Positions 1 through 42,917 of a stretch of DNA of 64,000 nucleotides are shown here, in pieces; the first letter of the stretch is position 1, and each line of letters opens with the position of its first letter. The stretch is from Planctomycetaceae bacterium (GTDB lineage Bacteria; Planctomycetota; Planctomycetia; Planctomycetales; Planctomycetaceae), in contig JADZEF010000110.1 of the NCBI GenBank assembly GCA_020850695.1, positions 1 through 64,000 of the forward strand, given 5' to 3'. Position numbers and translations under genes: made by a program. The notes beneath the pieces were generated by a model, which made no database searches, was not told the origin of the DNA, and saw only the letters and a list, made by a program, of their open reading frames with translations.

Positions 1-678
1 GGGCAGGAAACTCTCGGGAAGCGCGAAGAAGTAACTGAGCGCCGAGACGACGTAGGGGCGCGGCTGAATTCTGCGGTTGGCATAGTCGAAGTAGGCGAGC
101 AGAGCCTGCATCACCTGCAAGGGAGGCGTCTGCCCGGCGGCGTCATTGGGGGGAAGAGGAACGAAGAGGTGCGAGCCGGCCGCGGCATCCTTCAATTCCG
201 CCACTCCCGCGGTTCCGGATGGCAGCGACTGAACGGCAAACGAACGGTCGGCGAGATACGCCAGCCTTCCCAGGAGAGTGAAGCGATTGGCCGCTGCGGC
301 GGCTCGTGCGAGATCGAGCAGGCGGGGCCAGAAGCCAGGTGATTGAGGCGTTCCCGCTCCCTTTTGCACAAGGTCGACGGCTTGCGGTCCGGCGGCGACG
401 ACGAACCGCCGCGCGATGCGAAGCGGGACGCGGTAGGACCCCGGAGACATCTTCTCGACCTGAGGATCAAGGAAAGGGCAGATCTGGTTGATGCCCGCCA
501 TGAGCTCATCGAGCGTCGGTTCAGGAGGCGGAGCCGGCGGCTGTTCCTGGCTCGCGACGGGGCCGTCTTCCGCCCCATTCGACGGCAATGCCACGGGATG
601 GGGCTCCGGGGGCGGCGGGAGCAGCGCGGCCATTTCGTCGAAGACCCGGTGAGGAGCCCTGTAGTCCGTCTCTTTCAT
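1..678 (-). CDS. Hypothetical protein, last visible gene of the large operon (C-terminus outside window)
   Basis: The frame opens with ATG at 678 and stays open for 226 codons to the window edge, so the protein is partial. A GAGG sequence sits about 8 nt before the ATG, and the gene starts 9 nt after the stop of the preceding gene, so it belongs to the same transcript. The first 60 residues are Pro/Glu-rich with a run of prolines and look like a disordered linker. The rest is mixed helix and strand, including a segment near residues 75-100 (RVPLRIARRFVVAAG). There is no signal peptide or membrane segment in the visible part. I do not recognise a family. Its position after a two-TM coiled-coil protein suggests a cytoplasmic partner of the membrane part of the system, which is inference only. 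Confidence 0.7.
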   Translation of the reverse strand, partial: MKETDYRAPHRVFDEMAALLPPPPEPHPVALPSNGAEDGPVASQEQPPAPPPEPTLDELMAGINQICPFLDPQVEKMSPGSYRVPLRIARRFVVAAGPQAVDLVQKGAGTPQSPGFWPRLLDLARAAAAANRFTLLGRLAYLADRSFAVQSLPSGTAGVAELKDAAAGSHLFVPLPPNDAAGQTPPLQVMQALLAYFDYANRRIQPRPYVVSALSYFFALPESFLP

Positions 679-687
679 TACAAATCC

Positions 688-2262
688 TCACGCTTGCGTC
701 TGTTCGTCGACGCCCACATCCTCGTCGCGATGCGGCGCGGATCGTTTTGCGGCCGATCCAAACCCCCGCACGGAATCGCGAAGCTCCGTTCCGACGTACT
801 CTTCAGCGACCTTGAGCAACTCCAGCGAACGCTCCTGGCACAGGTGAATACCGGCGGGGGCGTCCACTTCGCAGACGTCGCGAGATTCCCGCAGCGCCTC
901 GTCAAACGGAGAAACATCCTTGTCCGGGGCGGCGGCCAGCCGGAAGGCGAGTCCCGCAAGCAGCGCCGTCCCCAGGAGAGCCAGCATCCAGTCCGGACCC
1001 GAGAGCCCGAACGGTCTCGCGGTCAGCTCCGTCGCCACGGTCATCATCCGTTGCGATTCGCTCTCGAGGGCGTCAGCCCGAAGCATCAGCGTCCGCACCG
1101 GCTCCGAGTCGGCCTTCAGCACGGCAGCGCTTCCCGCGTCGCGGCTCGCCTGTTTCAGCAGAGCCGCGGCTTCGCTCAACAAGGCCTCGGCTTCGGCCCG
1201 CGGAAACCAGCTGGCCGAATGCGCGGAAACATCCCGTAGCTGAGCGTCGATCGCATCCCCCAGCTGCGCCAGGCCGCGACGCCGCTCGATCAATTCGGCG
1301 AGCGGCGGAACCTCCGCGGTCAGTGCTGTCGATGAGCCGGCCGCCGCTTCCGCCAGTTCCTGGCACCGTCCGACGAGCGGCCGCAGCGAGACCGCATCCG
1401 CTGCCTGCCGGCTCAGGCTTTCGGCCGTCTGACGCGCGGCATCCATGCGGCCGCGGAGCGGAGCCGGATCGTCGTCGTCCTCGAGCTTCGCCGCCTCCGT
1501 CGCGATATCGATGCATTTCGTGAGTAGGTCGTTCATGGCGGCTTGCGGAAACCACGCAGGATCATTTTCCGCGATCGTGGTCTTCAGCGACGCCAGCGAG
1601 GCCGACAGACGCGCGAGTTCCTTGCGGCGGTCGTCGGCCGTTCCGGGCCGCGACGTGCCGCCGCCGAAGAGTTCGAACTGAAGAAGCCGCACCAGCGTCC
1701 GCGCGTCGGCCGCCTGCGTCATTCCCGCTGAGAGGGATTGAAGCCGCATGTCCGCGGCGGCCGTCAGTCCCGGAATCGAGGCGACGGCCTCATTCAATTT
1801 CTGTCGGTTCTGCCCGCCGCCGAGGAGTGGCTGCATCCGCTGCAGAACGAGATCCGCCCGGTCGACCAGGGCGACGCATTCTCTCTTCGGGAACCAGGCG
1901 TCGGGCTGCTCGGCGAGCTTCGCCTTCATTGCACTCACCCCTGTCGCAAGGCGTTGCCAGGCACTCCGCCGTTCGGCGAGCACCGGCGATTCGACGACGG
2001 GCGCCGTGGCGGCAGTGGCCGCGGCCGCAGACATTCGTGCCAGCGCCACGCATTGCCCGACGCGAGACGCCCCCGTCACCACCAACGAGGGGGCGGTGGC
2101 GCGAATCCTGACGAACGCCCACGACACGACCCCGGTGACGAGGAGCGCGCCGAGCACCCACGGCGCCGACGCCAGAACGAGGACGCGGAGCAGCGACGGA
2201 ACGTTCTCTGCCGCGCCCGATTCCTGGATTCTCCCGGAATGGCTCCGGAGCTTGCTGGCCAT
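688..2262 (-). CDS. Two-TM protein with a long helical/coiled-coil core, function unknown
   Basis: This 524-residue protein starts at an ATG with GGAG 7 nt upstream, 27 nt after the stop of the giant propeller gene. A hydrophobic helix at about residues 28-51 and a second one near 420-442 bracket about 370 residues of Ala/Leu/Arg-rich helices with coiled-coil character and regularly placed Trp-Phe-Pro motifs (WFP at four places: AWFPKRE, AWFPQAA, SWFPRAE and similar). These repeats suggest three to four copies of a helical module of about 110 residues lying on one side of the membrane. The C-terminal 80 residues after the second helix are acidic. I do not recognise the family. The topology and location suggest a membrane scaffold working with the giant single-pass protein encoded just before it. 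Confidence 0.8.
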   Translation of the reverse strand: MASKLRSHSGRIQESGAAENVPSLLRVLVLASAPWVLGALLVTGVVSWAFVRIRATAPSLVVTGASRVGQCVALARMSAAAATAATAPVVESPVLAERRSAWQRLATGVSAMKAKLAEQPDAWFPKRECVALVDRADLVLQRMQPLLGGGQNRQKLNEAVASIPGLTAAADMRLQSLSAGMTQAADARTLVRLLQFELFGGGTSRPGTADDRRKELARLSASLASLKTTIAENDPAWFPQAAMNDLLTKCIDIATEAAKLEDDDDPAPLRGRMDAARQTAESLSRQAADAVSLRPLVGRCQELAEAAAGSSTALTAEVPPLAELIERRRGLAQLGDAIDAQLRDVSAHSASWFPRAEAEALLSEAAALLKQASRDAGSAAVLKADSEPVRTLMLRADALESESQRMMTVATELTARPFGLSGPDWMLALLGTALLAGLAFRLAAAPDKDVSPFDEALRESRDVCEVDAPAGIHLCQERSLELLKVAEEYVGTELRDSVRGFGSAAKRSAPHRDEDVGVDEQTQA

Positions 2263-2289
2263 ATCGAGGCTCCAAAGGGCATTCGAACA

Positions 2290-5200
2290 TCAGGGCCTGG
2301 ATCGCGAGCGAATCAGAGCGTGTGGCGTAATGATCCACGGAGAACCGTTCAGCCAGGCCGCGCCGACGATGTCGCCGTAGGGCACGCTCTGAAAGCCATC
2401 CATCCGACGAAGGACGTCCCCCTGCGACCGGACGACGACATCCAGTCCGCGAAGTGACGCCCGCGGGGCAAACGTGACTTGTGTAGCGCCCGCGTCCAAC
2501 ATCAGCACCTGAGATTCCGGCGAAGCCCGTACCCTCTCCCAGCGATCGTCGCGGCGCTCGAACCGGAAGTCGCCGCGGTAAAGGCGCAGGTCGGACCCCG
2601 GCAGAAAGCGGGCTGCGGTGTCCAGCGGAACTCCTTCGCCGGAAGTTCGATCGACCGCCTGCCGGTCCAGCGAAGCAAGTCGGAATCCCTCGGCCGCATC
2701 TCGCCGGGTCAGCCCCGCCGCAGTCGTCAGCCACACTTGTCCGCCGGCGCACTGGAAGTCGTCCGGGGCATCCCAGCTGAAACGGCCCTGATGAAACAGC
2801 GGCCAGTCCGCACCGGCCTCGATTCCGGCCACCTGCAATGCGACTTGGCTGTCCCAGACGTTCCATGTCCACGAGGAATCGCGATGGAGCGTGTTCGCCG
2901 TGGCGCGAAATTCCTCATCGACAGGCTGGGGCGCCCAGGCATTCTGCTTCGGATCGAGGGTGAATACTCCTTCGCCATCGCACAGGATGCAGACGCGCTG
3001 ATCGCGGTCGTGTCGGAAGACCCGGCGACACCCTGCGAGAGAGTCGCCGGCGGTCGACACGTTCCAGAAATGCTCGGTTCGTCCGTCCGGCGAGAGTTCG
3101 ACCACGCCGGCATCTGTTGCGGCGAAGATCCTCGCCCCGTCAAACGTGATGCCACGCACGACGTCGATGGCGAAGCGCCCGTTCTCCAGCGACAGGGGTG
3201 CAAAGTCGACCGTGTCGCCGGAGACACGGCGACCGTTCGCGGCATGCACGAACCGCGGGCCGTCCTCGGCATCGACAATTCCGATGGTCTCCGTGCGGGC
3301 CAGCCAGAGGCCGCCGGGGCCTTCCCAGAGACGCTTCTCCGCCGGTACCCAGGTCCCATTCGCGGTATCGAGTGTCCATGTTTCTCCTTCCTCGTTTCGG
3401 GCCGACGACAGCGCCTCCGTGGATGCCGCCCCGGTCAGATCACCGCGAAACGGCCTACCGTCCGCATGGAATCGGCCCATGCGTTCGATCGATCCGAATC
3501 GCGCGTCGACCGCGTCTCCCGATTGCCGCTGCCATTCAAACGTTGTATTCGCCAGCGAACGACGCACCAGCCCGTCTCGGCTTCCCAGCCAGACGGCGTT
3601 TCCCGAAGGCAGGGCGCAGGCGACATCGTCGAACGCGAATCGGCCGGACGCGGGGAGCACTTCCAGGGCGTCCGCGGCAACTGCATTCAGTGCGACCCGC
3701 AGCCCCTGGCTGTCGCGCGTCCAGCGCCATTGCGGCGTCGAAACGAGAACTCGCTCGGCCGGTGCGTCGGGCAGCGGCTTCCAGTCGCCTGATTCGGCAT
3801 CCCACCGATGGACGGCCCCGCCGTCGTCCGCCGAATCCAGAACGCCCCCCGTCGCACTCAGCAGGCGGAACGCGCCATCGGAATTCCATGCCAACGAACG
3901 CGTCCATCGAAGGCCGGCGGCCTCCCGATCGAACGCAATCGCCCCGGCGGGGGTCTCCAGCCAGAGGCGTTTGTCGTCCGGAAGCACGGCCCGGTAGAGG
4001 TCGTGCAGAAATCGTCCGTCGCTCAGATCCGACGGCAGCCCGCGCCATTGCATCGAACGCCGTTCTCCGGTCGTGAATCGCCACTCCTCGTTCGCATGCA
4101 TTGTCGACGCCAGAGCGGCCGCTTCTTCGGCGGGCACGGGATCGCCGGTGGACCACTCCGCACTCTCCGGATCCTTCACCAGCGGAGACATTGCGGGCGA
4201 CTCTCCGGCGGAAGCGATGAGCAGCCGCTGGCCGAGGCGATCGATCACGAAGTGATCCGACTGTCGGCGCGGACTGGGGACGAGGCCGATCGACTGGCGT
4301 GACGTCGCGTCGATCGAGATGACGCCCGCCGCCGTCGCCAGCAGGGGTCCGCGGTTGTCGTGAAACACGTCGGTGACTTCGTCCACGTCAAACCGGCCGA
4401 CGGTCGGATTCCAGGCGACCGGGAATTGTTTCTGGCCGAGCCGCCGCGCGAGGCGGGGTTCGCCGCCGTCGACGTGCTTCCATTCCCAGTCGGGCGAATC
4501 GAGCAAGGGACGCGTCGACGGCGCGGCAAGCCGTGGATCGGCGGGCGTCGCCATGCCTTTCGCATCGAGCGTGAAAGCGCGATCCATCGTCACGGCATGG
4601 AACGACCCGTCATGAACGAATGCGTTCAAGAAACGCTCGCCGTCATTGAGAGGGAAAGCGGTCGCGGGGGCGATCCAGTCCAGCGAACCCTTGTCGATGT
4701 TCCAGCCTGAGGCCGCCCGTTGCGAAACCGCGATCAGACGGACTCCATCCACGGCAATCTGTTCGGGCCGGTGGAATTCGAAATCGCCGTCCGGATGCAG
4801 CGGAAGTTCGTGCCATTCGCCGGCTGCGGCCGCGATCCGCAGCACCGCCGGCGAATCCGGGTCGGCGCGCGTGCATTTCCAACGCGCCGTCGAGGCCAGC
4901 ACGAGGTGCAGATCGGGAGGGGCGTCCGTGGTGCGCCACCGCCCTTCAAAGAATTCCTGCCAGGGGATGTCCTTTCCTCGCGTGAAGGCCGCCAGCGGCG
5001 CACGCTGCACCGCCAGTTCGTCGCATCCGGGGAGCAGGCCGGAATAGACGAGCCGCGTCCCTTTCCGCGTCCACGTCGTCACTCCCGCGGTCGAGAGCGT
5101 GTGGACGCGGCCGTCGGCGGGAATCGCCGCTCGAGCGGTCTGGAAGTCAAAGCACCCCGCTTCGGGAAGAAATGCCGCATCGTGCCATTCCCCTTCATGC

Positions 5201-8200
5201 GTCTTGATCTGGAGAACGCGCTGGGCGCCCCGGCCCGTCGCCCGCGCCGAGTTCGTCTCCCAGAGCGTGCGGGACGCCGTCCACGGGTCGTCGTCGCCGG
5301 TCACTTCGATCCATTCGTTCGCCTCGAGCCTTAACGCCTTCTGTGTCGTTCCCTTGATCACTCGAACGTGCCAGGCGCCGTTCCACTGCAGGAACTCGCC
5401 ATCTTCGGGCAGCAGCAGGAATGGGCGGTCGTCAAAGCGGACGATTTGCCGGCGGGCCGCGTCGAGCTGGCACAGGCCGCGGGCACACAGCAGCCACGCC
5501 GTGTCGCCCGACTCCATGGCGGCGCGGACCGGCTCGAAATCGAACTTCTTCCCCGCCGTCCATCGGACGACCAGCGGCGACTCGTTCCCGTTTTCCCCAC
5601 GACGCAGTTCCATCGAATCGCCCGCGGTGCGGGTCCAGGTCCAGGCGCCAGCATGCAGGACGGCCCGGGCCGCTTGTTCGCTGTCGGGGAGTTTGTCCCC
5701 GCGGGTCCATTGCCCGGCCTCCCGGTCGAGGCGGCGCCACAGTTCGTCATTGCCGAGAAGCCAGAGATCGCCCGCAGGGGATGTCCAGAGCCGCGAGACG
5801 AGTGGCTTCGAACCCGCGGGGAAGGGATTCGGAAGGCGTACTGCACCATCGAGGCCGGGCGACTTCGTGGAAACTCTCCAAAGTCCGATCGGCGTGTCCA
5901 CCACGATCCGTCCTTCGGCCTCGGCCGTCACCCGCTGAATGCGATCGGTCAGAAGCCCCGTGCGCGGCTGCAGCCCGACCGGCATCCATTCACGGCTTGA
6001 ACCGTCCTCTCCGTCCACGGGCCGGCTGGGGAAGCGGTACTCGAGCGCCGGCCTTCCTTCGTTCCGCCGCAACCGCCATCGACGACCCGCCAGACCGTCT
6101 CTCAGGGCAGCTTCCCAGCCGGAATCGGGCGGCTGGACCTTCGGGTGTTCGGGGTCGGTCAGATCCTGCACGGTGATTGCGGTGAGGCACAGCAAACGGC
6201 CGCCGACCGGGACGAGCCGCTCGACCGGAAGGAGCACAGGGAAGGTCTCGCCGGAAGTGGCGTCATCGAGGACGAAACGTTCGAGCCGCGCGCCCGCCGC
6301 CCCCCAGATCGAGTGGGATGCGGGATCGCCTCCGATCTTCCGGAACTGGTCGTGCAGAAAGCCCCGCTGCGACGGATCGAGCACCCATGGGTCGTCCGTG
6401 CCATCGGCGGGCGTCAGCCGGATCGGTCCGGCACCGTCGCGCTGCACCTGCCATGTGCGCTTGCCGAACGTGACCGCATTGTCCTCGTCGGGCCATGCCT
6501 TCGACGAGGGGCTCAGGACTCCGGCATGCCATTCGAGGACATCCCCCGCGGCACTCTTCCACAACAGCGTCGGCGACGAGTTGCCCGGCAGCCACGCGAA
6601 GTCCTGAACGCCTCCCCGCACCGGAGCGAAACGAATCCGATCGGCGCCTTTCGGCGTCTTCTCCAGCATGCCGACGCCCCAGGCATTGCCGTAGACGACC
6701 GTCTCGCCGGCCACAGTGAGGAGTGGCCCGCGGCCGCCGGGCATCGCTCGATCGAAGGGGGCGGGCTGGTCGATCGCGAGCCGGCCCGCGACGTAAGGCA
6801 TTTCGATCGGAGCCGCGTCGTCAGACGAACTCATCTGGAGCCTCACCGGCGTCTTGCGATCCTTCCGGTCGGCCAGAGCGCGCTCGGCAAGAGTCGCGTT
6901 CCAGAGCGTCTCGTTCGAATCGGTCCAACCGGTGCGGTCCAGCTTGCGGACGCCGGTGACATCGCGATGCAGGATCTGATCTCGTCGCGGAGAACGTGTC
7001 ACGAGCGTTCCCGAGCGCCGCGCAATGGTCGGAGTCTCTGCTGGATCTTTCGAGTACGAGACCTGAAACTCCCGCGTCGTGACCAGGAGCACACCATCGG
7101 AGAGGGCCAGGCTCGTCGGAACGTCGAAATCGAGCGTGCCAGGGTTCGAGAGGGTGACGGGGATCTCGTCGTCCATTCGTGATTTCCACGAAATCGACAC
7201 ACGCCCGGCAGGTTCTCGAACCGTCCATACGGAAGCCGGTGGTGCGAGGCGGGCCAGCCGCCAGGCTCCGTCTACGGTGGGTTCGAGCGACCAGCGCCGG
7301 CCCCCCCGAGAGAAGGCGAGCACCGGCTCCTCGGCGGAGAACTTCGCAAACCGGACTTCGGACGGCTCGTCCGCGGCTGCCATCGGCAGGAGCGCGAGGG
7401 GAAGGCCGGCCACGTCGACCCCGTAAACAGCGACGCCGGCGGCGGTGGCGACAAACGTGTGCCGTCCATCGTGCATCACGCGATACGCATCGTCCCACTT
7501 CAGGCGGACTCGTTCGGCGTCGATCGGGACGTCGACCCCGAGTCCGGCGACGTTCCACGTCAGCCGCCGCTTCCTCGAGGAGTCCGTGACAATCTTCCAG
7601 CCGGCCGACGATTGAAGGCGATCCGGGACGAGCGGGCGGGCCTCTTTCAGTCGCTGCTTTCTCTCTTCCCCTTCCAGGACGGCTCCGGTCGAAGCGACAA
7701 ACAGGGCCTCTCCCGAGTCGAGGACGATGTCCTCTCCGGACTCAAAGACCGACTTGATGGGGAAGGTCTCCGGAAGCGGGATCGGCTTCGTCTCGGCCGC
7801 GTCGTCGGACAATGGAATCAGGAGCTTTTCGCTCTCCCGCACGAACCACGCCCGGTCCCCCGCACGGACGATCCCCGTCGCGTCGGGAGCGTCCTTCTCA
7901 GGCCGCGACGCGACGGTCAGGCGGTGCGTCGTGAGGTCGTAGCGGCACAGGATGCTTCCCGCCAGTTCCAGCCAGGCGGTCGATTTCCCGGCATGGATGC
8001 GAACCGGTTCGACACTCGGCAACGGCCTGGCCGGCTCTGCGGATTCTGCTTTGCCTTTCGAGAATCCCCCGGCCGGATCGATCCGCCATTCGTCATCCCC
8101 GACATTCCACGACGTCGACGACGAAGCCGCCGCTGTCTCCCATTGAGTGTCGACGAGGCGGGCGATGCGTCCAGTGGCGTCGCCGAGATGCAGCTTCGAA

Positions 8201-11200
8201 TCGATGATCCAAAGGCGGTCCGCCACCCACGGCGGCGGAGGGGACCGCTTCCAGACGCGGGTGGCTGGAGAATAACGGGCCGAGTCGCCGCGGCTTCCGA
8301 GCACCGCGAGCGTCGGTCCGTCCCCGACGGCGGCGACGACCTTCTGCGGCGCGGCAGGCCAGGCGACGGGCGTTTCGAACCGCGCCAGCCGCTCGCGCTT
8401 TGGCAGCGAGAGGACGACGATCGCTTCGTCATCTGCGTAGGCCAGCTGCTCGTTGCGAAGGTCGAGAGCCGTGATGTTCTCCGCCAGACGATCGAAGCTC
8501 CAAGGAAGTGTGTCTTCCGTCCGATTTCCGAGCCAGAGTTGCCCCTTGCGATCGAGCAGCACGGGCACGGAACCGTGCAACAGAATCTCGCGGAACGGCG
8601 CGTCGCCGGGAGTGACGTCGATCCAGGCGTGCTTCGACGGGTCGTATTGGAAGAGCCGTCCCTTGTCATCGTGCAGGAAATGCCCGAGGGGGGTCGAGCG
8701 GGCGCCTTGGAGCGTTGCTTCGGCCGGACCGGGCGGAAGCAACATCACCGCCTTCGATTTCGGCGCTTCGGGAACGGCGGCTCCGTCCGCGGCTGGTGCG
8801 TTCGCCCCCCCTTTGGGGAAGAGGAGCGCGTCCGCATTGTTCAGCGTGGCGACGATTCCTGCGGGGGAGGGCCGCCAACCGACGAGTGCACCAGGAACTC
8901 GATGCAGGTTCCATTTCCCTTCGGCTTCTCGCCAGACGCCGAGCCGCGCCGTCCCGTTGATGCTTTCCTCAACCCAGGCTTCATCGGCGTGGACCGCCAG
9001 CTTGAGAAACTGGGAATGCTTCCCAAGGACCTGCCATTGGCGCGCGGCCGGGGAATAGGCCGCAATCTGTCCGTCGTTGTGGACGAAGAAGAACCGGTCC
9101 CCGTCTCCGCCGACGGCGAGCGGCCGCCCCTTCGGCAGGCCCGAGGGCAACTGCCGGCCCACGAGGGTCCGCGGCGGCGCATCGCCGTCCCGGACCGTCA
9201 GCCGGCCGTCGTCCCACAGTCCGGCGACGGCCGTCCCTTCTTTGCCGGCGACGGCGATTGCCACCGCTCCGTTCCACTCGTTCCGCGGGTCGAACTCCAG
9301 CCGGTCGTTCTTCCAGGAAATCCGCGCGACGGTTCCGTCGGCACGCCGCGCCACGAGTTGTCCGCCGGCAGGGATCATCTCGACAGTGCCCTTCGCCGCT
9401 TCCGTCCAGAGGCGCTGCGACGGGTCGTAGGCGGAGGTGACGCGACCGTCCGACACGACCAGCAACGTCCCTTTCCCCTCGACGTCCAGCTCCGCGCTCG
9501 CTGCCAGCGCGGTCAGGTCGAGTTGATCGGGCGGATTCGACCGCCAAAAGCCGTCGGAGCGTCCCGACGAATGAAACCTCGTGAGCGTGCCATCCGCGCT
9601 CGATGCCGCAATCAACTCGTCTCCCGCGAGCGCAATGTCGTTGACGTTGGTCTTCGCGATGAACCATGCAGGCGGAAGCTGCGCCCGCGCTCGGTAGAGC
9701 TTTCCATCCGCCGCGAGAAGCCACCACGTGCCCGGGTCTCCGGGAGTGGCGACCAACCGGTCCAGTTTGTCCGCCTTGGGGCCGACCGCGTTTTCCCACA
9801 CCAGTTGCTCGCGATCGCAGTGGCCCAGCTGACCGGTGCGGAAGGCACACAGAAAACCGGTCGGCGTCTCGACAACGCCGACGAGATCCGCCGGCGTTCC
9901 CGGAGCTCCTGCCGCCGTTCGCCAGACCGCGGCGCGGTCTGCATCCACGCGATACACCTCTCCCGCGGGCGTCGCGATGAACGCCGTCGTCCCATCCGCC
10001 CCGCACCCCGCCGTGAACGACACGATGCGATTCGTTCCATCGAGCGCCAGCGGCTCCCAGGTCGACTGGTTGCCCGCCTGCTTAAGGCGAGCGATGCGGT
10101 CATCGGCCAGCCGTCCCCAGACGGTCTTCCCATTCGAATACAGGCGGGACGCGGGCGTGTCCCCCACAACGGTCTGCCAATCCGACAGAGACTCGTGCAA
10201 CACCGCCGTGCGGCGGGCTGTGGTCAGCACGAGCCCGTCCGGAAGCGGGGCCATGTCCACGACTTTCTGGCCGCGGGGGTCGGAGAGCGGCGACGGACCG
10301 ACGAGGGGTTTCCAAGAGCCCCCCTGGTTCAACCAGGTTGCACTGGAGGAATCGATCGCCGCCACTTCTCCCCCGGTGGAAGTGATGGAAACGACCTTGG
10401 AAACCCCTTCCAGCCGCCCCTTGCCATCCGGCTCGTCGCCATGAGAGTAGAGTGTTCCGCCGGCGGCCAGTGCGTAGGTCCGGTTCAATCCGGTCGCGAA
10501 TTGTGAGATCCCCGTCAGGTCCGTCTCATCTGCTTTACGGACCGGGAACCAGCGGCTCTCCTTCCACGAGTAACGCCACCAGCGGCGATCGGCGCCGCCG
10601 GCGAGGTCGATGTGATCGGCATCCCCCGAGACGAGCAGCGGACGACCGGTCAGCATTGAGGCCGGTGGACCGACCGCGGCCGTCCGCACCGCTTTGGCGT
10701 CCTTGCTTCCGACCGTGAACTGCCAGAGAGAGTTGTCATCGAGGACGGCGACCAGTCGATCGGCGTCGCCGGCGAACGACTTTACGGGCCGGGCGAACTT
10801 TCGCTCGACCGGCGCCGGAGTGACTGGATCGAGGCTGAAGAGCCGCAGGTCGGACGTTCGGAGCCAGAGGAGTCCGGCCGCGGCGACCGCTTGTTCGACG
10901 GGGCCGACCGCTAAAGGCTTCCAGGAGCGGATTCGGTCGTCGTAGACATGAGGAGACTCGCCGCCGACGACAAGCGTCGGTCCGCTGAAGGCGACGGTGT
11001 AAACCGTGGACAACTGCAGGCCTAGGGCGGCGTCACCGACGACAAGCTGTGGCGCCGCGCCGGGCGTTTCGACCAAGTGAACCCGCCCGCCCCGCTCGAT
11101 CCAGAGGGCGCGGTCCGAGGCGACGTCGGCGAACAGGCGGACGAGCCCTTTCACGTTGCCCATTGGGGCCGCGTCGCGCTTCCCATAAGCCAGAAACCAG

Positions 11201-15571: not shown

Positions 15572-15653
15572 GAACTGCAGATGCCATCGGAATCAGGAAT
15601 CGAAACTCCATGAGGATTGACGTCTGGTGCTGACATCCCGGCAGCGGGCCGGC

Positions 15654-18811: not shown

Positions 18812-18813
18812 GA

Positions 18814-20615: not shown

Positions 20616-21725
<1,110 letters not shown>

Positions 21726-26635: not shown

Positions 26636-26759
26636 TGGCCCACCGGAGTCGCTGCACCGCCCACACGACGCGCTTGATTTGCCTGTCGAAATCCTCGACG
26701 CGGGCATCCAGACCGGAACGAATCTGCCAACGTTCCAGGCTCTGAAGTGATGGGAACGG

Positions 26760-26840
26760 ATGTCGACAACACTTTCCCATAACCCAACAGGCAACCTGAA
26801 ACAATCATTAACTCACGCATTTTTCTTAGAATCTTAATTC
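26760..26840. promoter_or_regulatory. AT-rich stretch in the gap before grpE-like/hsp70, possible internal promoter
   Basis: This part of the 272-bp gap between the J-like and GrpE-like genes is clearly richer in A and T than the surrounding sequence (for example a run containing cattttt and cttaattcat). In an otherwise tightly packed operon, this is the most likely place for an internal minus-strand promoter for the GrpE-like/Hsp70 section. I could not assign a convincing -35/-10 pair, so the call rests on composition and position only. Confidence 0.25.
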
Positions 26841-26907: not shown

Positions 26908-27429
26908 TCAAATTCCCATTTCGTCCGCACGGTCTGGTAGCAGCGCGCTCTCGAACGCCTCCAGATCCGGATTCGCCGTGGGCCGGACGCCGGCATTGGC
27001 GTCCTGAGGAACCAGATCGACCAGGAACGCCGCATTGACGATCGGAAAGGGATCGAGCGATTCCGGAGCGGGGAACTCGATGGCCTCGATCGACTGAAGG
27101 GCGGAGTGGATTGCTGCACGATCCAGGCCGTGGACCGTGTGTGCCCACAGACGTTCCTCGAAATAGAACCTCTCGTTCGCCTTCAATCGCTCCGCCGTCG
27201 CCAGATCGGATTCGGTGAGGGTCCGGCCGCGGACAACCGGTGGCCGCCCCGCGTCGAGTTGCTGTCGAAGCTGATGGCAGGCCTGGTCGAAGGCGTCGTA
27301 CCCCGCATCGGGGTCGACTCCCAGAAGCGCGAATACGTTGTGGCGGTAGGCGTTGCGGTTCTCGAGCAGTTCCTGCACAAGCCGCAGCGTGCTCTCGGGC
27401 GCCGGACCGCCCGCAGAAAGCTCTGACAT
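26908..27429 (-). CDS. Degenerate J-domain-like protein lacking HPD
   Basis: This 173-residue protein starts at an ATG with AGGAAGAG just upstream. Residues about 26-75 read like a J-domain: NVFALLGVDPDAGYDAFDQA matches the 'yevLGv...as.eeik.ayr' opening, and helices continue to about residue 90 (TAERLKANERFYFEERLW). The HPD tripeptide that stimulates Hsp70 ATPase is absent; the equivalent loop reads LDAGRPP. The C-terminal 80 residues carry no known motif. With GrpE-like and Hsp70 genes following directly, a J-like client adaptor is plausible, but the missing HPD means it may recruit without stimulating ATP hydrolysis, or may be something else entirely. Confidence 0.5.
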   Translation of the reverse strand: MSELSAGGPAPESTLRLVQELLENRNAYRHNVFALLGVDPDAGYDAFDQACHQLRQQLDAGRPPVVRGRTLTESDLATAERLKANERFYFEERLWAHTVHGLDRAAIHSALQSIEAIEFPAPESLDPFPIVNAAFLVDLVPQDANAGVRPTANPDLEAFESALLPDRADEMGI

Positions 27430-32110: not shown

Positions 32111-35100
32111 TCATACGTCCGAGCCGGTCAGAAATCTCATGGCTTGCCCCAGAGATTCTCGGGCCTGCTCGAGTTCGTCCCCCTTCAGCTCGGCAGCCGC
32201 CCGGCGTGCCCAGAGCCGGCTCAACAGATCGTTGATTGGCTTTGCGTCGCCGTTCCGGCCGTGGCCGTTTTGCGCGACAGCAGCCCGCTTCCACGCGGCG
32301 AGACGTTCCATCGCCTGCGATTCCTTCTTCGCGGCGATCTCGTGCAGCGCTGCGAGCCGCACGAGATCGTGCGCGGCGAAGGGAAGTCGCGACGCGTCCG
32401 CGAGTCCCTCTTCCGTCTGCAACGCATCGGCCGCGTCCAGCAAGGGCTGCAGCTGCCGCAATCGATTCGCCTGAAGCAGCCGGACCGCGTGTTGAACATC
32501 CGGCGATGCGTCGTCGCGCGCCGCATCGGCGTTCGTTTCGACAGGGGCCTCGTCGCTCAGCCAGTTCTCGCGGATCAGTCGGACGAACAGCTTCACCTGA
32601 GGATTGTCCCCTCCAAGGGACGCGAGCTGGTCGATCCGGGCACGGAGGTCGGTGGGAAGTTCATCGCCGGCGACGAGAATCCGGCACACCACTCCGACGG
32701 CCAAGGCTTGCCTGTGGGCGGGCCGCCGCCCCGCGATTTCGTCGGTTTGAACCCGCAACTCCTCCACTACATCGTCCGTCAACGGGCCGCGCCGCAACCG
32801 CGCCACCACCGCCTGGATCTGGCAGGCGTCACGGCGTTCGATCAGTTCATCACGGCGTTCCGGTCCGGACTCATCGATCAGAATGTCCAGAGCGCGGGCG
32901 GCCGGATCGAACAACTTTTCCTGAAACAGGAAGGCCGCGGCCCATTCGAGAATCGCGGGCCTCGCGCTCGCGGGAAGCGCCGGGAACTGCGGCGATTCGA
33001 GGAGAGCACGGACGGCCTCCGCGGCTTCGCGGAACTTTCGCTGCTTCCAGGCCAGCACGGCGCGCGCCAGCTCCACCTGCACCGGTTGCGGCCCCCCCTC
33101 TTCCCGCAGCAGATCGGAAGCCTGGTCCAGCAATGTCCTGTCTTCCGTCGTGCGAACAAGCAACATGGCCAGCCGTTGCCGCGGCAATCTCCAGCTCGCG
33201 TCGAGGCCTGCGGCTTTCTCGTACCAGTCGCGAGCGACCTCCCACTCCCGATCGGCTTCGGCAATTCGACCGAGTGCGAGCGCCGCGTGGCCGCGTTCGC
33301 GCAGTTCGACGCCGGTAGATGTCTGCCGCCAGACGTCCTCATACTGCCGCCGCACCACATCCCCCACACTTCGCGAATCCCTTTCGCCGGCCGCCTCGGC
33401 ATCTAATTCCAGCAGTCCGGCTTTCGCCAGAGCGGCCTGGGGATGGGCGGGTTCAATCCGGACGACTTCGGCGATTCGACGCTGGGCCTCCGTGAGATTT
33501 CCCGTCCGCAATGCGATCTGGGCGAGCAGTCCCAGCGCGTCGACATGAGTGGGGTCGCGCTCGATGAGTGCGTTGAGGCGCTCCGTTGCCCCCTCCCAGT
33601 CCCGCTGCTGCGCGCAGTCGCGGGCGGCCACGAACAGGGCGGCGTCGCGACTGATTTCCGGTCCGTCGAAGTCCCGCGGGTCGTCAGCGAGTCGCTCGCC
33701 AGCGGACAGGGCGACATGGCCCGAAAGCCATCGGCGTTCGGCCTCCAGAAAACGTCCGAGAGGGCGGAGGACAATCCGATCCGGGGCGGCGGAATCGAAG
33801 CGTGTGGTGGAATCCAGGACTCGGCGGGCTCGTTCCAGCTTCCCCTCGAATGCGGCGACGAATGCCTGGCACAGTTCCCACGCGGGATGTTCGATGCCGA
33901 GCCGCACCAGGCCGTCGAACCGTTGCAGTGCCGCCGCTCGATGTGCCCGGCCGGCCCGCCGGAGTGCGAACCAGAGTTGCAGCGCCTGCTCGTCGTTCCC
34001 GGCTGCGTCGTCCAGCTGCATCGCTCTTCCGTAATCGCGGCGCTGCGCTTGGGCCAGCCGCAGCAGGGCCCGGGCGCGCGCCCGATGGTCGTCGTCCTCG
34101 ACCTTCGAAAGAGGATCGATGGCCTCGGCCTCGCGCCCCGCGGCAATCAGCACGCTTCCATACCAGACGCGGGCCAGGTTGAGCGATTCGGCGGGGGCCG
34201 CGACCGGGTGCAGGTCGTCCAGCAGTTGCTCGAGATCGGCCGCGGCCGGCCATTGGCCGAGGCGGACTGTCTCGCTGTATTGCGTCGCCGCTTCGGCCAT
34301 CGCCTTCCAGAACAGGATCTCGGCATTGTCGGGCGCGCCTTCCGCCGCCTGACGGAACTCATCCCGCGCACGGACGAAGTCGCCTTCTTCCCACCAGATC
34401 TGGCCGCGGAGCCGGAAGTCGTCGGGACGGGGGTCCTTCAGCTGCTTCAGGTATTCGAGAGCGTCAAGTCCGCGCCCCTGCCGTCGCCGGGCCCGCGCCA
34501 GGTTGCGTCTCGGCCAGTCCCACTCCGGCCGCGCTCTGGCAAGGTCCTCGCACCGCGCCGCACGCCGCTCGACTTCCGCCAGCGAGCTGTCGGCTCGCTC
34601 GTCCACTCGGAGAAACCGCTCGAGCGCCCGCACCACCGGGCTCTGCGGCATGTCCCCGGCGGGTTGCTTCGACAGCCATTCCGACCAGACGTCGAGCGCT
34701 TCGTCAGGGGCGCTCGCCTCGGACTGCGGCGAATCGAAGAGCGAGCGAGCGAGCGCCTCGGGAAACGCTCCTCTGTCATCGTCACAATCGGGGGTGCGGC
34801 GATGGACTTCGCACGCTTCCGGGATCTTTCCCTGTCCGAAGAGAAGGAGGGCGGCCTTTCGCATGCGGGCGGCCAGCCACGGATCGCACACGGGAGCACG
34901 GTCTCCCAGCTGGCCGCGGATGCGGTCGATCAGTGCGATGGCTTCCGCAGGGTGGCGGGCCTTCAGCAGTTCGTCGGCGGCGAACAGCATGTCGGCGACG
35001 CGGTGAGGAGAAAGCGGAAGAGGCTGGCTCCACACGTCGGTCGGCAAAAGAGCGAACCAGGGACGGAAGAGAGTGGAGAGCGGGGCCGACTCCCATGCGA

Positions 35101-37075
35101 CGCTATCAAGCGAAGGAATCGCCAGCGGAGCGTTGGGATCCGACTCCGCCGCCGTCGATTCGAGCGCTGCGGCCACATGCAGCGAGAAATCCGCAAGGCG
35201 GGCTTCGAGACAGTCCGGGCGTTCGGCCAGAACCTCGGCCAGTCCCTCGCGCGCGGACATGGGCTCGCGCGACGATGTCCAGAGCACGCGGGCGAGACGA
35301 TGCTCCGGAACGGCCGCAGGATGCGACGCGGCGGCGGCAAAGAGCCGGCCCGCCTCTTCCGGCTCCAGATGCTGGAGCGAGAGCTCCACCGCGCAGAGGT
35401 GATCCAGTTCTTCGTCGGGAACGAATCTTTGGTTGGCAGAGGCCCGCAGCGCGGCAACCTGTCCGAATTCTCCGCGAACCACGGCACGCCGCGCGAGGAG
35501 ACGGTCGCGCCAGGCGGCGACGGGCGCGGAAACCGCGTCGTCGGATGGCGGCACGTCCGGCTCGGCAGCGGACGCCGTCGGGCTGCGCTGCGCCAGTTCC
35601 GTCTGGAGGCACCATTCCGCGAGCGCCAGGTCCGGATCGCGGCCGGACTCGGGGGTGCGAAGGGTTCCCGCCAGAACGAGAAATCGCCGCGCGTCACTCT
35701 CCCGGTCTCTGCGAAGGTGGAGTCGCGCCGTCGCGAGCGCGGCGGCCGCGGCCGCTTCCGCATCGAGCGGATTGTCGTCCGTCGCCGTCGCGAGCGGTTC
35801 CAGTCGCAGCAGAAGGTCCGCTTCCGCGCCGAGCTGCGTGTAGGCCTTCAACTCCAGTTCGGCGAATCGCCAGGCGCGGAATGCGGGCGGCGCGGACTGG
35901 AATGCGCGGACGGCTTCACGATCGCGACCCAGCTGAACCTGGCCCGCGCCGATGAGCCAGCGGCCGTCGACCGCATGAGCATCCGCCGGCAGCAGCGACT
36001 CGAGCGTCTCGACCGTCTCGTCCAGTGCGGTCCAATCGGGAGCCTGGTCGCCGTAGAGCGTTTCGTTGACGGCCAGCATGGCGCGGAGCGGACCGCGAAG
36101 GCTCGACCAGGCTGAATCGGGGTTCGTCCGTCCCTCCTCGTGCGCCCGTGCCGCGCCGTCGAGCAACGCATTGGACCGCGCCCACTGCCGTCGCCGGTAC
36201 GCCGCCAGTGCAAAGCACGTCCAGGTGGCGACGTCGCTCCCGGCGTCGGGCGCGTATTGCTCCGTCAGCGCGAGGGCTCGGGCGAGTTGTCCCGCACGCA
36301 AGTCGCATCCGACTTCCACGGCCGCGCACCAGTCGCGCGGAACAATTTTGAGCAGGCGGCGGCCCAGCTCGCGCACCAGAGGCAGCTGGTCGGCGGCGGG
36401 CCGCACCAGGTCGACCCGCAACCCGCGACGGAGCAATGCCTCGACCGACTCTTTCAGCGCGGCATCGACCGGCCGGGTTTCCAGAAAGCTGAGATAAAGA
36501 TCGGCTGTTTCCAGGTCGGAACGGTCCAGGGCCGCCGCGGCCCGCGCCATTTCCGCGATCAACGCGTCGTCCTGCGGGGCCAGGCGGCGGGCGCGGCCGA
36601 ACAGATTGATCGCCTCGTTTTCGTCTCCCCGCCGCCGCTCGAACTCGACCATCTGCAGGTACTGCCGGGCGGCGCGCCGTCCCGCGTCTTGCCAGTGGGG
36701 ATCGTTGCGGAGGCGGCTAATCGCCGTCCCGATCGGTTCGAGCGCTCCGTCGAGTTCGTCGCGGGCGACCGACGAGGAGACAAGGGCCGAGGCGACGCCG
36801 AATGTGAGTGCAGGATCCGCGTCGACGCTTTCATCCGACGTGAGTTGCTCCATCGCGTGCCGTAATGACAGGAGTGCGACGTCCGGCCGCGACTTCTGCA
36901 GCTCCTCCAACTCGCGGAGGCGAGCGTGCTTCTTCGCCGCACGCAGTCGCGAACCGGAACGTCGCGGGCGCGCCGCCGGTTCGCGCGGCATGGAATCCGA
37001 TTCCACCGGCGGCGTGGCCACAGACCGGAGCGGCGCCGGGGCGGGGATTCTGAGTTCACTGAGAGGCTGATTCAT
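32111..37075 (-). CDS. Very large TPR-like repeat protein (1,654 aa)
   Basis: The ATG start lacks a clear ribosome-binding site. After an N-terminal Pro/Arg-rich region (1-50) nearly the whole protein consists of paired helices of 30-40 residues with TPR character (for example RARDEFRQAAEGAPDNAEIL, LNALIERDPTHVDALGLLAQ, DWYEKAAGLDASWRLPRQRL), which would give several tens of repeats forming an extended solenoid. There is no signal peptide or TM segment, so it is probably cytoplasmic. It sits between the CHAT protease and the Clp-like unfoldase. Large TPR proteins next to CHAT proteases are known to control them, for example the TPR-CHAT (Csx29) protease of type III-E CRISPR systems. A sensor or inhibitor role for the CHAT gene is inferred from that precedent. 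Confidence 0.85.
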   Translation of the reverse strand: MNQPLSELRIPAPAPLRSVATPPVESDSMPREPAARPRRSGSRLRAAKKHARLRELEELQKSRPDVALLSLRHAMEQLTSDESVDADPALTFGVASALVSSSVARDELDGALEPIGTAISRLRNDPHWQDAGRRAARQYLQMVEFERRRGDENEAINLFGRARRLAPQDDALIAEMARAAAALDRSDLETADLYLSFLETRPVDAALKESVEALLRRGLRVDLVRPAADQLPLVRELGRRLLKIVPRDWCAAVEVGCDLRAGQLARALALTEQYAPDAGSDVATWTCFALAAYRRRQWARSNALLDGAARAHEEGRTNPDSAWSSLRGPLRAMLAVNETLYGDQAPDWTALDETVETLESLLPADAHAVDGRWLIGAGQVQLGRDREAVRAFQSAPPAFRAWRFAELELKAYTQLGAEADLLLRLEPLATATDDNPLDAEAAAAAALATARLHLRRDRESDARRFLVLAGTLRTPESGRDPDLALAEWCLQTELAQRSPTASAAEPDVPPSDDAVSAPVAAWRDRLLARRAVVRGEFGQVAALRASANQRFVPDEELDHLCAVELSLQHLEPEEAGRLFAAAASHPAAVPEHRLARVLWTSSREPMSAREGLAEVLAERPDCLEARLADFSLHVAAALESTAAESDPNAPLAIPSLDSVAWESAPLSTLFRPWFALLPTDVWSQPLPLSPHRVADMLFAADELLKARHPAEAIALIDRIRGQLGDRAPVCDPWLAARMRKAALLLFGQGKIPEACEVHRRTPDCDDDRGAFPEALARSLFDSPQSEASAPDEALDVWSEWLSKQPAGDMPQSPVVRALERFLRVDERADSSLAEVERRAARCEDLARARPEWDWPRRNLARARRRQGRGLDALEYLKQLKDPRPDDFRLRGQIWWEEGDFVRARDEFRQAAEGAPDNAEILFWKAMAEAATQYSETVRLGQWPAAADLEQLLDDLHPVAAPAESLNLARVWYGSVLIAAGREAEAIDPLSKVEDDDHRARARALLRLAQAQRRDYGRAMQLDDAAGNDEQALQLWFALRRAGRAHRAAALQRFDGLVRLGIEHPAWELCQAFVAAFEGKLERARRVLDSTTRFDSAAPDRIVLRPLGRFLEAERRWLSGHVALSAGERLADDPRDFDGPEISRDAALFVAARDCAQQRDWEGATERLNALIERDPTHVDALGLLAQIALRTGNLTEAQRRIAEVVRIEPAHPQAALAKAGLLELDAEAAGERDSRSVGDVVRRQYEDVWRQTSTGVELRERGHAALALGRIAEADREWEVARDWYEKAAGLDASWRLPRQRLAMLLVRTTEDRTLLDQASDLLREEGGPQPVQVELARAVLAWKQRKFREAAEAVRALLESPQFPALPASARPAILEWAAAFLFQEKLFDPAARALDILIDESGPERRDELIERRDACQIQAVVARLRRGPLTDDVVEELRVQTDEIAGRRPAHRQALAVGVVCRILVAGDELPTDLRARIDQLASLGGDNPQVKLFVRLIRENWLSDEAPVETNADAARDDASPDVQHAVRLLQANRLRQLQPLLDAADALQTEEGLADASRLPFAAHDLVRLAALHEIAAKKESQAMERLAAWKRAAVAQNGHGRNGDAKPINDLLSRLWARRAAAELKGDELEQARESLGQAMRFLTGSDV

Positions 37076-40310: not shown

Positions 40311-40339
40311 TCTGGACGTTAGTAGTACAGCGTGTCGAA

Positions 40340-41086
40340 CTATGGTTTCGGTCCTTCCTCGATCAAAAGGGGGATGATCCAACGGCGTCCTTCGTCTTCG
40401 AGCAGCAGCTCCCAGTGGCCGCCTTCGAGGGGAATGGGCCGATTCAGCCAGTCCGAAAGGCGGACCGAGAAGTCGGGATCGTCGTCGGGTCGCGCCAGAG
40501 ATAGCATGGCCTCGCTGGAAATCCCGCGCACTTCTTCGACGGTCAGCGTCCAGGAGTGCCGTCGCCCGGGCGTGTGAAGACGCAGCGAACACTCGACATC
40601 CGGGTCCGAGAGTTCAAGCCGCCAGCGGCGTTCCTGCGGGGCTTCGTCCATCACTCCGAAAACGGCCGTGGACGACGTCGGCGCGATCGTCTGGGTGACG
40701 TCGTCGAACTGAACCACCAGGTTGGTCCGGAGCTGGAGGACGCCTTCGCGGACTTTGTTCCAGAGTTTCTCCGTTCCGCCGCCCGGCAGCGGAGTCGGCT
40801 TCGCGTAGTTTTCCGGGGTCGCCGCTTCGCGGACCTTGGCGGGGGCGGCGACATTCTTCGACGCCAGCGAGGGGTCGAGAAAAGTCACGAGTTCACGGAC
40901 GGCGGCAAAGTCATTCATCCAGCGGTGCACCTGTTCGCGTTCTTCGGCCGTGCAGACCCCCGCCAGGAACCGCGCGATGGTGACATCGTCGCAGGGGCCC
41001 CATCGCCGCTGCTCCTCGTCGCGGCAGGCTTTCAACGTCGATGCGATGCGTTCCCAGTCCTTTTGTTCGAAGCCGGGTGTTCCCAT
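40340..41086 (-). CDS. Putative anti-sigma-like regulator without TM segment
   Basis: The protein has 248 residues from the ATG at 41086, which has GGGAAGG about 9 nt upstream; in-frame starts at 41152 and 41164 are possible. Residues about 20-70 (WGPCDDVTIARFLAGVCTAEEREQVHRWM) resemble the N-terminal helices of zinc anti-sigma domains, in which 'l..yldGel...er..v..hl' is seen, but the HxxxCxxC zinc set is incomplete. The C-terminal 150 residues are beta-rich (RWRLELSDPDVECSLRLH). No TM helix is present, unlike most anti-sigma proteins. It lies directly downstream of the sigma-phosphatase fusion, which is where anti-sigma genes usually sit. The function is proposed from location plus weak similarity. 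Confidence 0.5.
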   Translation of the reverse strand: MGTPGFEQKDWERIASTLKACRDEEQRRWGPCDDVTIARFLAGVCTAEEREQVHRWMNDFAAVRELVTFLDPSLASKNVAAPAKVREAATPENYAKPTPLPGGGTEKLWNKVREGVLQLRTNLVVQFDDVTQTIAPTSSTAVFGVMDEAPQERRWRLELSDPDVECSLRLHTPGRRHSWTLTVEEVRGISSEAMLSLARPDDDPDFSVRLSDWLNRPIPLEGGHWELLLEDEGRRWIIPLLIEEGPKP

Positions 41087-41345
41087 CGAGTTCGCCTTCC
41101 CGCTCACCTCGGAGCATGCCCGCACGACCGCCGAACGATCGTGCATGTCCATCCGCTTTTTCAATTTCCGTGGTTTTCAAATCTGCCGGCGTCCTTCGCC
41201 ACGCGAAATCCTTCGAGTACCGCCTCCGGGCGCCATCAAAGTCCCCATCCATTCCATTGGCCATGACGGGCATCGCCTGGCATCGTCCGGCTTCGAATGT
41301 CCGCGTCCCCGGCTCAATCTGGTGCAAGCGATCCATGGCCAATTC

Positions 41346-42917
41346 TTAGCCGACACAATCGCGGAACACCTCCCGCATCCGCGCCAACCACGTCTGGATC
41401 GTCGCTCGCGACCGGATGCCCAGCGCCTTGGCAATCTGGTCGTGAGGGACTCCGTCGAGCTTCATCCGCAACACTTCCCTCCATGCCACCGGGAAGCTGC
41501 GGGCCTTCGTCTCCAGGCATTCCCGCAACTCGAGCGAAACCGCTCCGCCTCCTGCGACTTCAAACCGGTCGTCCAACTCGACCGTCCGCCGGTTCCGCTG
41601 GGATTCGCGGACCCTCAACGCCTCCCGCACGGCAATCACCCGGAAGAACAGGCAGAGCGGACAGTCGTGCTTCCATTGGTGAAGCTTGCGGATCAGCCGG
41701 AAAAAAGCAATCTGCAATACGTCGTCGGCGTCCGCGTCGTTCGGCACGATCTGCAGGACGGAACGCCGGACCTTGTCGCAAAGTAGCCGATAAAGACTCT
41801 CCGCGGCGGGGGATTCCTTGAGATGAGCGGACAAGAGTTGCCGTTCCGCCAGGTCGGGGCAGAGATGCTCCGGGCATTCGTCGCAGGTCGGGGGACGGCG
41901 GCGGACCGACAGGAGCGTCGCGTCATCCTTCGGAGGGCATTCCTCGGCGGCCGATTCATACAGACCCCAGACAAGGTCGTGCAGCGAAGTGCCTGCCGGC
42001 AGGGGAGTCGTTGCGAGCTCGTCGAGGTGCGAGGCCAGCATTCTTCCATCGGGGGTCAGTTGCTCGAAGACCCCGTCCGAGCCCAGAACCAGCTCGTCAC
42101 CGTCGTCCATTTGGCACTCGCAAGCCTCAAAGGAATCTTCCGACCAGTCGACGTTCAACCCGACGAACAGGCCTCCCAGGCGATCGACGTTCAACGTTCT
42201 GTCCGCCTGGCGGCAATGCAGTCGCCAGCAACGACCGGAAAAGGCCGAGTGAGCGGTTCCATTCCGTTCGATCAACGTGATGGAGATTTCCACGTACAGG
42301 CCCTCCGGCAGGACCGGACGCAGTTCGGCATGCAGGCGTTCGAGCACCGCTTCGGGGCGGGTCGTCTCCCGCGCCACAGCGCCGATCAGCCGGCGACATC
42401 CTTCGGCAACGAGGAATGCCAGCCAGCCATGTCCGGCGACGTCCCCGACGACCACCCTCAATGGATCTTCGTCAGTACTGACGTCGAAGAAGTCGCCCCC
42501 CACGTCCTCCAGCGGTTTGAATGAGAGCTCGACCCGGAAACGCGGCACCGTTCCGACGAGGGATGTCGATGAGACCTCACGGGATGAGTCTGATGGATAC
42601 TCCTCCAGGATCTTCTGGGCGCGATGGGGCGAAAAGTATCTCGCGAGGGCGACCTGGACGGCCGCGCGAACCGCGTCCACCGGCCTCGGCGTATCGTCGA
42701 GGCGTCCCAGTTCAACGGGCGTGAGGTGATACAGCCAAAGGCGGCAGAAGATCAGGCCACGTTGAATGAAAGAAGCGTCGGACGCTCGCTCGGCGTTGGG
42801 ATCGGCGTATCGAGCCGCGAGGCGCTCCAGCGGCGAAATCGCCATGCGCCGGAGTTCGTCGAGGGCGCCTGGGTCCGATGCGCGCAATTGCCGTATGAAA
42901 CTGCTGGCATTGAACAA
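41346..42917 (-). CDS. SpoIIE-type phosphatase fused to an ECF-like sigma factor
   Basis: This 523-residue protein starts at TTG, supported by AAGGGG 8 nt upstream and by similarity running to the N-terminus. Residues 120-345 are a PP2C/SpoIIE phosphatase: GGDFFDV (140-146), VGDVAGHG (157-164), LGSDGVFEQ (278-286) and DDATLL (331-336), with the metal-binding Asp residues in place. Residues about 360-440 match sigma region 2 (DADDVLQIAFFRLIRKLHQW, then FFRVIAVREALRVRESQ), and 470-523 match region 4 with an HTH (WREVLRMKLDGVPHDQIAKALG). Residues 5-40 (FIRQLRASDPGALDELRR) also look like the beginning of a region 2, suggesting a partial duplication or insertion. It heads the operon, so it probably regulates it. 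Phosphatase activity could reverse the operon's kinase or switch the downstream anti-sigma-like protein. Confidence 0.88.
   Translation of the reverse strand: MFNASSFIRQLRASDPGALDELRRMAISPLERLAARYADPNAERASDASFIQRGLIFCRLWLYHLTPVELGRLDDTPRPVDAVRAAVQVALARYFSPHRAQKILEEYPSDSSREVSSTSLVGTVPRFRVELSFKPLEDVGGDFFDVSTDEDPLRVVVGDVAGHGWLAFLVAEGCRRLIGAVARETTRPEAVLERLHAELRPVLPEGLYVEISITLIERNGTAHSAFSGRCWRLHCRQADRTLNVDRLGGLFVGLNVDWSEDSFEACECQMDDGDELVLGSDGVFEQLTPDGRMLASHLDELATTPLPAGTSLHDLVWGLYESAAEECPPKDDATLLSVRRRPPTCDECPEHLCPDLAERQLLSAHLKESPAAESLYRLLCDKVRRSVLQIVPNDADADDVLQIAFFRLIRKLHQWKHDCPLCLFFRVIAVREALRVRESQRNRRTVELDDRFEVAGGGAVSLELRECLETKARSFPVAWREVLRMKLDGVPHDQIAKALGIRSRATIQTWLARMREVFRDCVG

What the first reader, a model, noticed from the sequence alone, without database searches (positions are those of the whole stretch)
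1..42917. Forty-three-kilobase one-strand operon combining sigma-phosphatase, kinase, FHA, MoxR-vWA, Clp-like unfoldase, CHAT protease, a dedicated Hsp70 set and a giant propeller protein
Twenty consecutive genes face the same way with overlaps or very short gaps in most places. Several parts are known from NTP-dependent bacterial conflict systems (MoxR-vWA with a partner protein, CHAT proteases, Ser/Thr kinases). Here they are joined by a chaperone triad, a Clp-N-bearing unfoldase/protease pair and at least three membrane proteins, one with about 3,480 extracytoplasmic residues. A working model is that the giant protein senses something at the envelope, the kinase, FHA-like protein and phosphatase relay the signal, MoxR-vWA and the chaperones remodel the complex, and the CHAT protease, fed by the Clp-type ring, is the output. 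I do not know this combination as a named system.
Basis: partly seen in the sequence, partly recalled or inferred. Interest (0 to 1): 0.92.

Follow-up and report, generated by a model that had tools for sequence, protein, structure and literature searches.

The report
Membrane-anchored MoxR-vWA plus CHAT protease system
A 43-kb run of genes in a planctomycete-type bacterium joins two rare, separately conserved gene sets: one centred on an ATPase, its partner protein and an enormous membrane-anchored propeller protein, the other on a caspase-like protease with its own chaperones; it looks like an undescribed branch of a known class of predicted bacterial conflict or signalling machines.

Summary
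The one-strand run is real: 21 genes, 17 of 20 gaps at most 100 bp. Most named domains check out; FHA, DnaJ and GrpE do not. The run is two modules. Module B (g13-MoxR-vWA-g16-g17-g18-giant, 23109-2290) recurs in the same order in four other genomes (three Planctomycetota, one Victivallales). Their MoxR proteins form one clade (100/98) and their giants align with this one at both ends; in one genome g18 and the giant are fused. Module A (sigma, g02, CHAT-ClpN, TPR, ClpN-AAA, kinase, g07, g08, Hsp70) recurs in one genome, G402, on other contigs; G402 also has module B. Module B belongs to the MoxR-vWA 'ternary' class of Kaur et al. 2020, but lacks FtsH, detectable bpX families and a propeller on the vWA protein. 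The window is cut by the contig start; the run probably continues about 8.6 kb on contig C221. Best reading: an unreported envelope-anchored MoxR-vWA subsystem joined to a sigma/kinase-controlled CHAT protease module. Gene identities are well supported; function (conflict or stress response) and co-transcription are inferred.

The parts
41346..42887 (-). g01: SpoIIE/PP2C-type phosphatase fused to ECF-type sigma-70 region 2/4; first gene of the run
   Evidence: Pfam SpoIIE 6e-23, Sigma70_r2 8e-6; TIGR02937 2e-12; sigma homologue P91|2 in G402 E 1.6e-6
40340..41152 (-). g02: unknown, anti-sigma-like position
   Evidence: homologue P91|1 in G402, 26% E 1e-14, next to its sigma gene; position matches the zf-HC2 protein of L052
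37161..40097 (-). g03: zinc-ribbon-like insert + CHAT protease (His and Cys present) + Clp_N repeats
   Evidence: Pfam CHAT 8e-10, Clp_N 5e-12; G402 homologue 39% E 9e-103 with conserved YYFGHG and FLNAC
32111..37075 (-). g04: 1654-aa TPR protein
   Evidence: Pfam TPR_19 2e-9; same position held by a 1529-aa protein in G402 (position only)
30149..32080 (-). g05: Clp_N + single AAA_2 Clp-type unfoldase
   Evidence: Pfam AAA_2 1e-34, Clp_N 5e-5; only other phylum hit at E<=1e-60 among 391 genomes is G402
28854..30152 (-). g06: Ser/Thr protein kinase
   Evidence: Pfam Pkinase 7e-35; G402 homologue in same order E 7e-29
27484..28863 (-). g07: unknown helical
   Evidence: G402 homologue in same order E 1e-17
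26908..27429 (-). g08: J-like look but no HPD; identity not supported
   Evidence: no Pfam or PDB hit; a 157-aa protein holds the same slot in G402
26607..26780 (-). g09: 57-aa ORF overlapping g10
   Evidence: open frame, overlap 23 bp
26171..26629 (-). g10: small protein; GrpE not supported
   Evidence: no credible Pfam or PDB hit
23610..26120 (-). g11: Hsp70 with extended C-terminus
   Evidence: Pfam HSP70 1e-50; two tandem G402 homologues E 6e-66, 3e-60
23138..23542 (-). g12: zinc-ribbon-like + TPR
   Evidence: Pfam TPR_2 1e-8
21730..23109 (-). g13: unknown, directly before MoxR in all five loci
   Evidence: position only; not profile-detectable
20616..21725 (-). g14: MoxR AAA+ ATPase, P-loop GPPGTAKS
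   Evidence: Pfam bpMoxR 9e-56; 37-40% identical to the other four; clade 100/98
18814..20550 (-). g15: helical N-terminus + divergent vWA
   Evidence: hhalign 97.6% to the four relatives; AF2 model matches vWA folds, Z up to 10.8, region 346-569
16310..18811 (-). g16: alpha+beta N-terminus and long coiled coil, found only in this family
   Evidence: hhalign 99.1% to the four relatives; no Pfam family beyond coiled-coil noise
15654..16247 (-). g17: small coiled-coil protein
   Evidence: position only
13109..15571 (-). g18: membrane protein with large soluble C-terminus
   Evidence: N-terminal motif shared with relatives (hhalign 47%, best of 13); fused to the giant in G402
2290..13023 (-). g19: 3577-aa single-pass propeller/kelch protein
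   Evidence: Pfam Kelch_6 and Reg_prop; hhalign to relatives 98.2% (N-terminus) and 98.9% (C-terminus)
688..2262 (-). g20: membrane protein, two hydrophobic segments
   Evidence: hydropathy; no Pfam
1..678 (-). g21: truncated by contig end; continues in frame on C221
   Evidence: 67-bp 96% end match to C221 and continuing frame

Best explanation
The run joins two conserved modules. Module B (g13-g19) is an envelope-anchored MoxR-vWA machine: the AAA+ ring and its vWA partner act, by analogy with known MoxR-vWA pairs, on a complex of g16/g17 held at the membrane by g18 and the giant propeller protein. Module A (g01-g11) is a sigma-controlled proteolytic module: an ECF sigma fused to a SpoIIE phosphatase, a likely anti-sigma (g02), a Ser/Thr kinase, Hsp70, a Clp_N unfoldase, and a CHAT protease carrying Clp_N domains as the likely output. 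Most likely the giant complex detects an envelope or intruder signal, MoxR-vWA remodels it, and the CHAT protease is released or activated in a threshold response; phosphorylation and sigma control set expression. Shown: gene order, homology, vWA fold, g18-giant fusion, CHAT dyad, presence of both modules in G402. Inferred: physical coupling of the modules, signal, topology, output, co-transcription.
For: Same core order in five loci. MoxR clade 100/98. Profile matches for vWA, g16 and both ends of the giant, with no cross-hits to other window proteins. vWA fold. g18-giant fusion in the 4208-aa G402 protein: L052's membrane protein matches residues 142-359 (E 6e-18) and its giant matches 784-4174. 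Module A order conserved in G402. Of 391 other phylum genomes, the only one with a close g05 is one of the two with g16; chance 2/391. ECF sigma at the head of a module A unit and of module B in G402 and a weak sigma match in L052 (E 0.018).
Against: Module B occurs without close module A homologues in G238, G463 and G465, so the link rests on two genomes, and large genomes carry more of everything. g13 and g17 are equated by position only. No FHA, DnaJ or GrpE. The giant keeps its length and aligns end to end, unlike the hypervariable effector expected of a conflict system. No promoter motif or transcript evidence. Several contigs are from draft metagenome assemblies.
Confidence: 0.55

Rival explanations
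1. Module B is an assembly or quality-control machine for a giant surface protein and an RHS/YD-repeat partner (a maturation chaperone, as RavA-ViaA is for enzyme complexes), and module A is a separate stress module that lies next to it by chance.
For: RHS-repeat or DUF1598 proteins lie next to the giant or the core in G402, L052, G238 and L054. The giant is colinear and length-conserved. Close module A homologues are absent from three module-B genomes. Maturation is the established role of some MoxR-vWA pairs (PMC3893208 abstract; PMC7159879).
Against: The single non-window genome with a close g05 also has module B. An active-looking CHAT protease and sigma/kinase control do not suit pure maturation.
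Confidence: 0.3
2. It is an ordinary beta-propeller ternary system (subsystem 4 of Kaur et al. 2020), the giant being the variable third component.
For: MoxR scores PF20030 at 9e-56; GXXXTAKS P-loop; a membrane protein with propellers is present.
Against: PF20030 also scores over its cut-off in 12 of 14 control genomes, so it is not specific. No bpX family is found in scanned module-B proteins, whereas the same genome has a bpX4-bpMoxR-bpX2 locus. The vWA region ends near the C-terminus, leaving no room for a propeller. The MoxR tree separates the two (long branches).
Confidence: 0.1
3. The run is a chance string of co-directional genes with several independent units.
For: Gaps of 193 and 242 bp after g01 and g02; in G402 the sigma-g02-CHAT unit is divergent from the rest of module A.
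Against: Same order of core genes in five genomes and of module A genes in two.
Confidence: 0.05

Closest known systems
MoxR-vWA FtsH ternary systems (Kaur et al. 2020, PMC7159879; Pfam ivWA PF19997, fvmX5 PF20003)
   Same: MoxR with TAKS P-loop beside a divergent vWA protein with an N-terminal helical region; L058 shows MoxR directly followed by ivWA; weak vWA-profile match E 5e-4
   Different: No FtsH, no Ubl-ligase genes found; g16 and a giant membrane protein instead
MoxR-vWA beta-propeller ternary systems (Kaur et al. 2020; Pfam bpMoxR, bpX families)
   Same: bpMoxR score, membrane plus propeller component
   Different: No bpX families detected, no propeller on the vWA protein; the propeller protein is 3.2-3.6 kaa and aligns end to end
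VMAP, iSTAND, iSTAND2 and TERNS3 ternary systems (PMC7159879, PMC8195603)
   Same: MoxR-vWA pair plus a third component and linked peptidase or kinase genes
   Different: None of their third components found by Pfam in the scanned proteins; whether Pfam holds a model for each was not checked
GAP1-N2 GTPase systems with Hsp70-GrpE (PMC7159879)
   Same: Dedicated Hsp70 in a predicted conflict operon
   Different: No GTPase found; GrpE not supported

Membership tests
MoxR-vWA ternary systems (class) | adjacent MoxR AAA+ and vWA genes | tested here: met
   g14-g15 in five loci; vWA by structure
MoxR-vWA ternary systems (class) | at least one conserved third component gene | tested here: met
   g16 and the giant in all five
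MoxR-vWA ternary systems (class) | function in biological conflict | not testable with these tools
   no phenotype data; a prediction in the original paper too
[quoted passage not shown]
   vWA spans 346-569 of 578 residues
beta-propeller subsystem | bpX partner domains | tested here: inconclusive
   none by Pfam in the scanned proteins; distant homology not excluded
FtsH subsystem | double FtsH-type AAA+ protein | tested here: not met
   no FtsH-type AAA among scanned genes beside the core in the window or the four relatives; the upstream end in G238 is cut
CHAT protease | CHAT domain with His-Cys dyad | tested here: met
   Pfam and alignment
DnaK-DnaJ-GrpE triad | DnaJ with HPD and a GrpE | tested here: not met
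   no HPD in g08, no family hit for g08 or g10
FHA protein (g18) | FHA domain | tested here: inconclusive
   no Pfam hit at E<=5, none in PDB sequences; distant FHA not excluded

The most novel reading that the evidence does not exclude
A distinct, undescribed class of MoxR-vWA machine whose third components are a coiled-coil protein and a 3-4 kaa membrane-anchored propeller receptor, coupled to a sigma/kinase/Hsp70-controlled CHAT protease: an envelope-to-protease signalling relay.
Probability: 0.4. Interest if true: 0.8.

Novelty: new variant of a known kind. Interest (0 to 1): 0.62.

Why it matters
It would add a membrane-receptor branch to the MoxR-vWA ternary systems, a large predicted bacterial conflict class with little experimental work, and it offers a defined gene set and a natural fusion (g18-giant) from which complexes can be tested. 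It would also tie Hsp70 and Clp-type chaperones to a caspase-like protease in bacteria.

Tried and rejected
Rfam and tRNA: nothing. g16 structure: low confidence, no PDB match at E<=0.001. CHAT profile against the C-termini of the G402 860-aa and G238 476-aa proteins and the L054 971-aa protein: no support, though the first two look CHAT-like by eye. Clp_N in the L052 598-aa protein: too weak (blastp E 0.008; hhalign 8%). Profile homology of g13 and g17: none. Shared promoter motif in the 5' gaps: no more than shuffles. PADLOC: only generic kinase and AAA matches. The vWA protein of C221 as part of the core: no match in G402, G463, G465 and only a weak one in G238. The window vWA query alone found no relatives among 98 genomes. 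The first gene caller, by length, failed and was replaced by codon scoring.

Full report
What is there. The window is the first 64 kb of an 84.3-kb contig, C112, of an 8.6-Mb genome in 440 contigs. From 42917 to 1 every gene is on the minus strand. There are 21 genes, median gap 52 bp, 17 of 20 gaps at most 100 bp. Upstream, plus-strand genes with ordinary functions begin (UvrA-like, SMP-30, DAP epimerase). GC is mostly 65-67% in the run and 61-64% just upstream of it. Because the window starts at a contig end, I looked for the missing end. Contig C221 matches the first 67 bases at 96%, and the reading frame of g21 continues across. There the run goes on for about 8.6 kb with a membrane protein, an NrdG-like radical SAM protein, a coiled-coil protein, a Clp-type AAA protein, a beta-helix protein and a vWA protein. 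This join is likely, not proven.

Domains. Pfam confirms SpoIIE + sigma, CHAT + Clp_N, TPR, Clp_N + AAA_2, kinase, Hsp70, TPR, bpMoxR and propeller repeats. The vWA protein has no Pfam match, but the listed best matches of its predicted structure are vWA-type domains: Foldseek best E 1.5e-4, VIA-align Z up to 10.8 over residues 346-569, with mean pLDDT only 47. FHA, DnaJ and GrpE are not supported.

Module B is a conserved unit. A search of 391 other genomes of the phylum with MoxR gave two strong relatives, G402 and G238. A scan of 84,980 species genomes added L052 (Victivallales) and L054 (Thermoguttaceae); only the best 80 of 415 hits were kept, so more members may exist. All five loci have g13-MoxR-vWA-g16 and then small protein(s), membrane protein and giant in one direction. 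In G238 the two halves come from contigs whose ends overlap by about 150 bp. hhalign with the four relatives finds the window's vWA (97.6%), g16 (99.1%) and both ends of the giant (98.2%, 98.9%), and no other window protein tested scores comparably. The N-terminus of g18 is the best of 13 at 47%; g13 and g17 are equated by position. In G402 one 4208-aa protein carries the g18-type membrane region (residues 142-359) and the whole giant (784-4174), which argues that g18 and the giant act together. The MoxR proteins form one clade, 100/98, and within it the Victivallales row pairs with a planctomycete, as horizontal transfer would give. A g16 profile found only the window genome, G238 and G402 among 392 genomes of the window's phylum, and only G463, plus two weak hits confined to the coiled-coil range, among 388 genomes of the Victivallales phylum.

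Module A is a second unit. g05 at E<=1e-60 occurs in one other genome of 391, G402, which is also one of the two other genomes with g16. There the order TPR-size protein, ClpN-AAA, kinase, g07, small protein, Hsp70, Hsp70 is kept, and sigma, g02 and CHAT-ClpN form a divergent unit completed on contig C680, whose end overlaps C91. The CHAT His and Cys motifs are conserved. G238, G463 and G465 lack close g05 and g03 matches. The chance that the one A-positive genome falls among the two B-positive ones is 2/391; this is a single event and open to genome-size bias.

Mechanism. From the published logic of MoxR-vWA pairs (PMC7159879) the ATPase remodels a complex bound by the vWA. Here the complex would include g16/g17 and the membrane pair g18-giant. 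The hydrophobic segment of the giant lies at residues 62-80 and equivalents are stronger in the relatives; which side the propellers face is not shown. The CHAT protease is the obvious effector; Clp_N on both CHAT and the AAA protein may bring them together. ECF sigma genes lead a module A unit and module B in G402, with a weak sigma match in L052, so expression is probably autoregulated. All of this paragraph is inference.

Known or new. The class is known; the subsystem is not in the papers I found. It fails a defining feature of the beta-propeller subsystem (no propeller on vWA) and of the FtsH subsystem (no FtsH). PF20030 alone is no test, since it scores in 12 of 14 control genomes. Reference libraries and held papers are limited, so absence of a name is not proof.

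Noticed in passing
G000:C221 (L163) 1-8618: Probable continuation of the run: NrdG-like radical SAM, Clp-type AAA without detected Clp_N, beta-helix, vWA protein with an FHA-like end by eye.
   Followed up: partly
G000:C164 (L047) 14496-17056: A canonical bpX4-bpMoxR-bpX2 locus in the same genome.
   Followed up: partly
L058 5122-14989: Candidatus Uabimicrobium amorphum carries an FtsH ternary-type locus (FtsH, MoxR, ivWA, fvmX5).
   Followed up: no
L133 3509-10188 and L031 3621-10106: RHS-repeat proteins lie downstream of the giant in L052's genome and in G402, followed by a transglutaminase-like protein in the former.
   Followed up: partly
window 49006-53694: 1562-aa PQQ/BamB-type propeller protein on the minus strand, outside the run.
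   Followed up: no
window 40098-40339: Gap between g02 and g03 holds repeated CCTTTGCGG-type short motifs.
   Followed up: no
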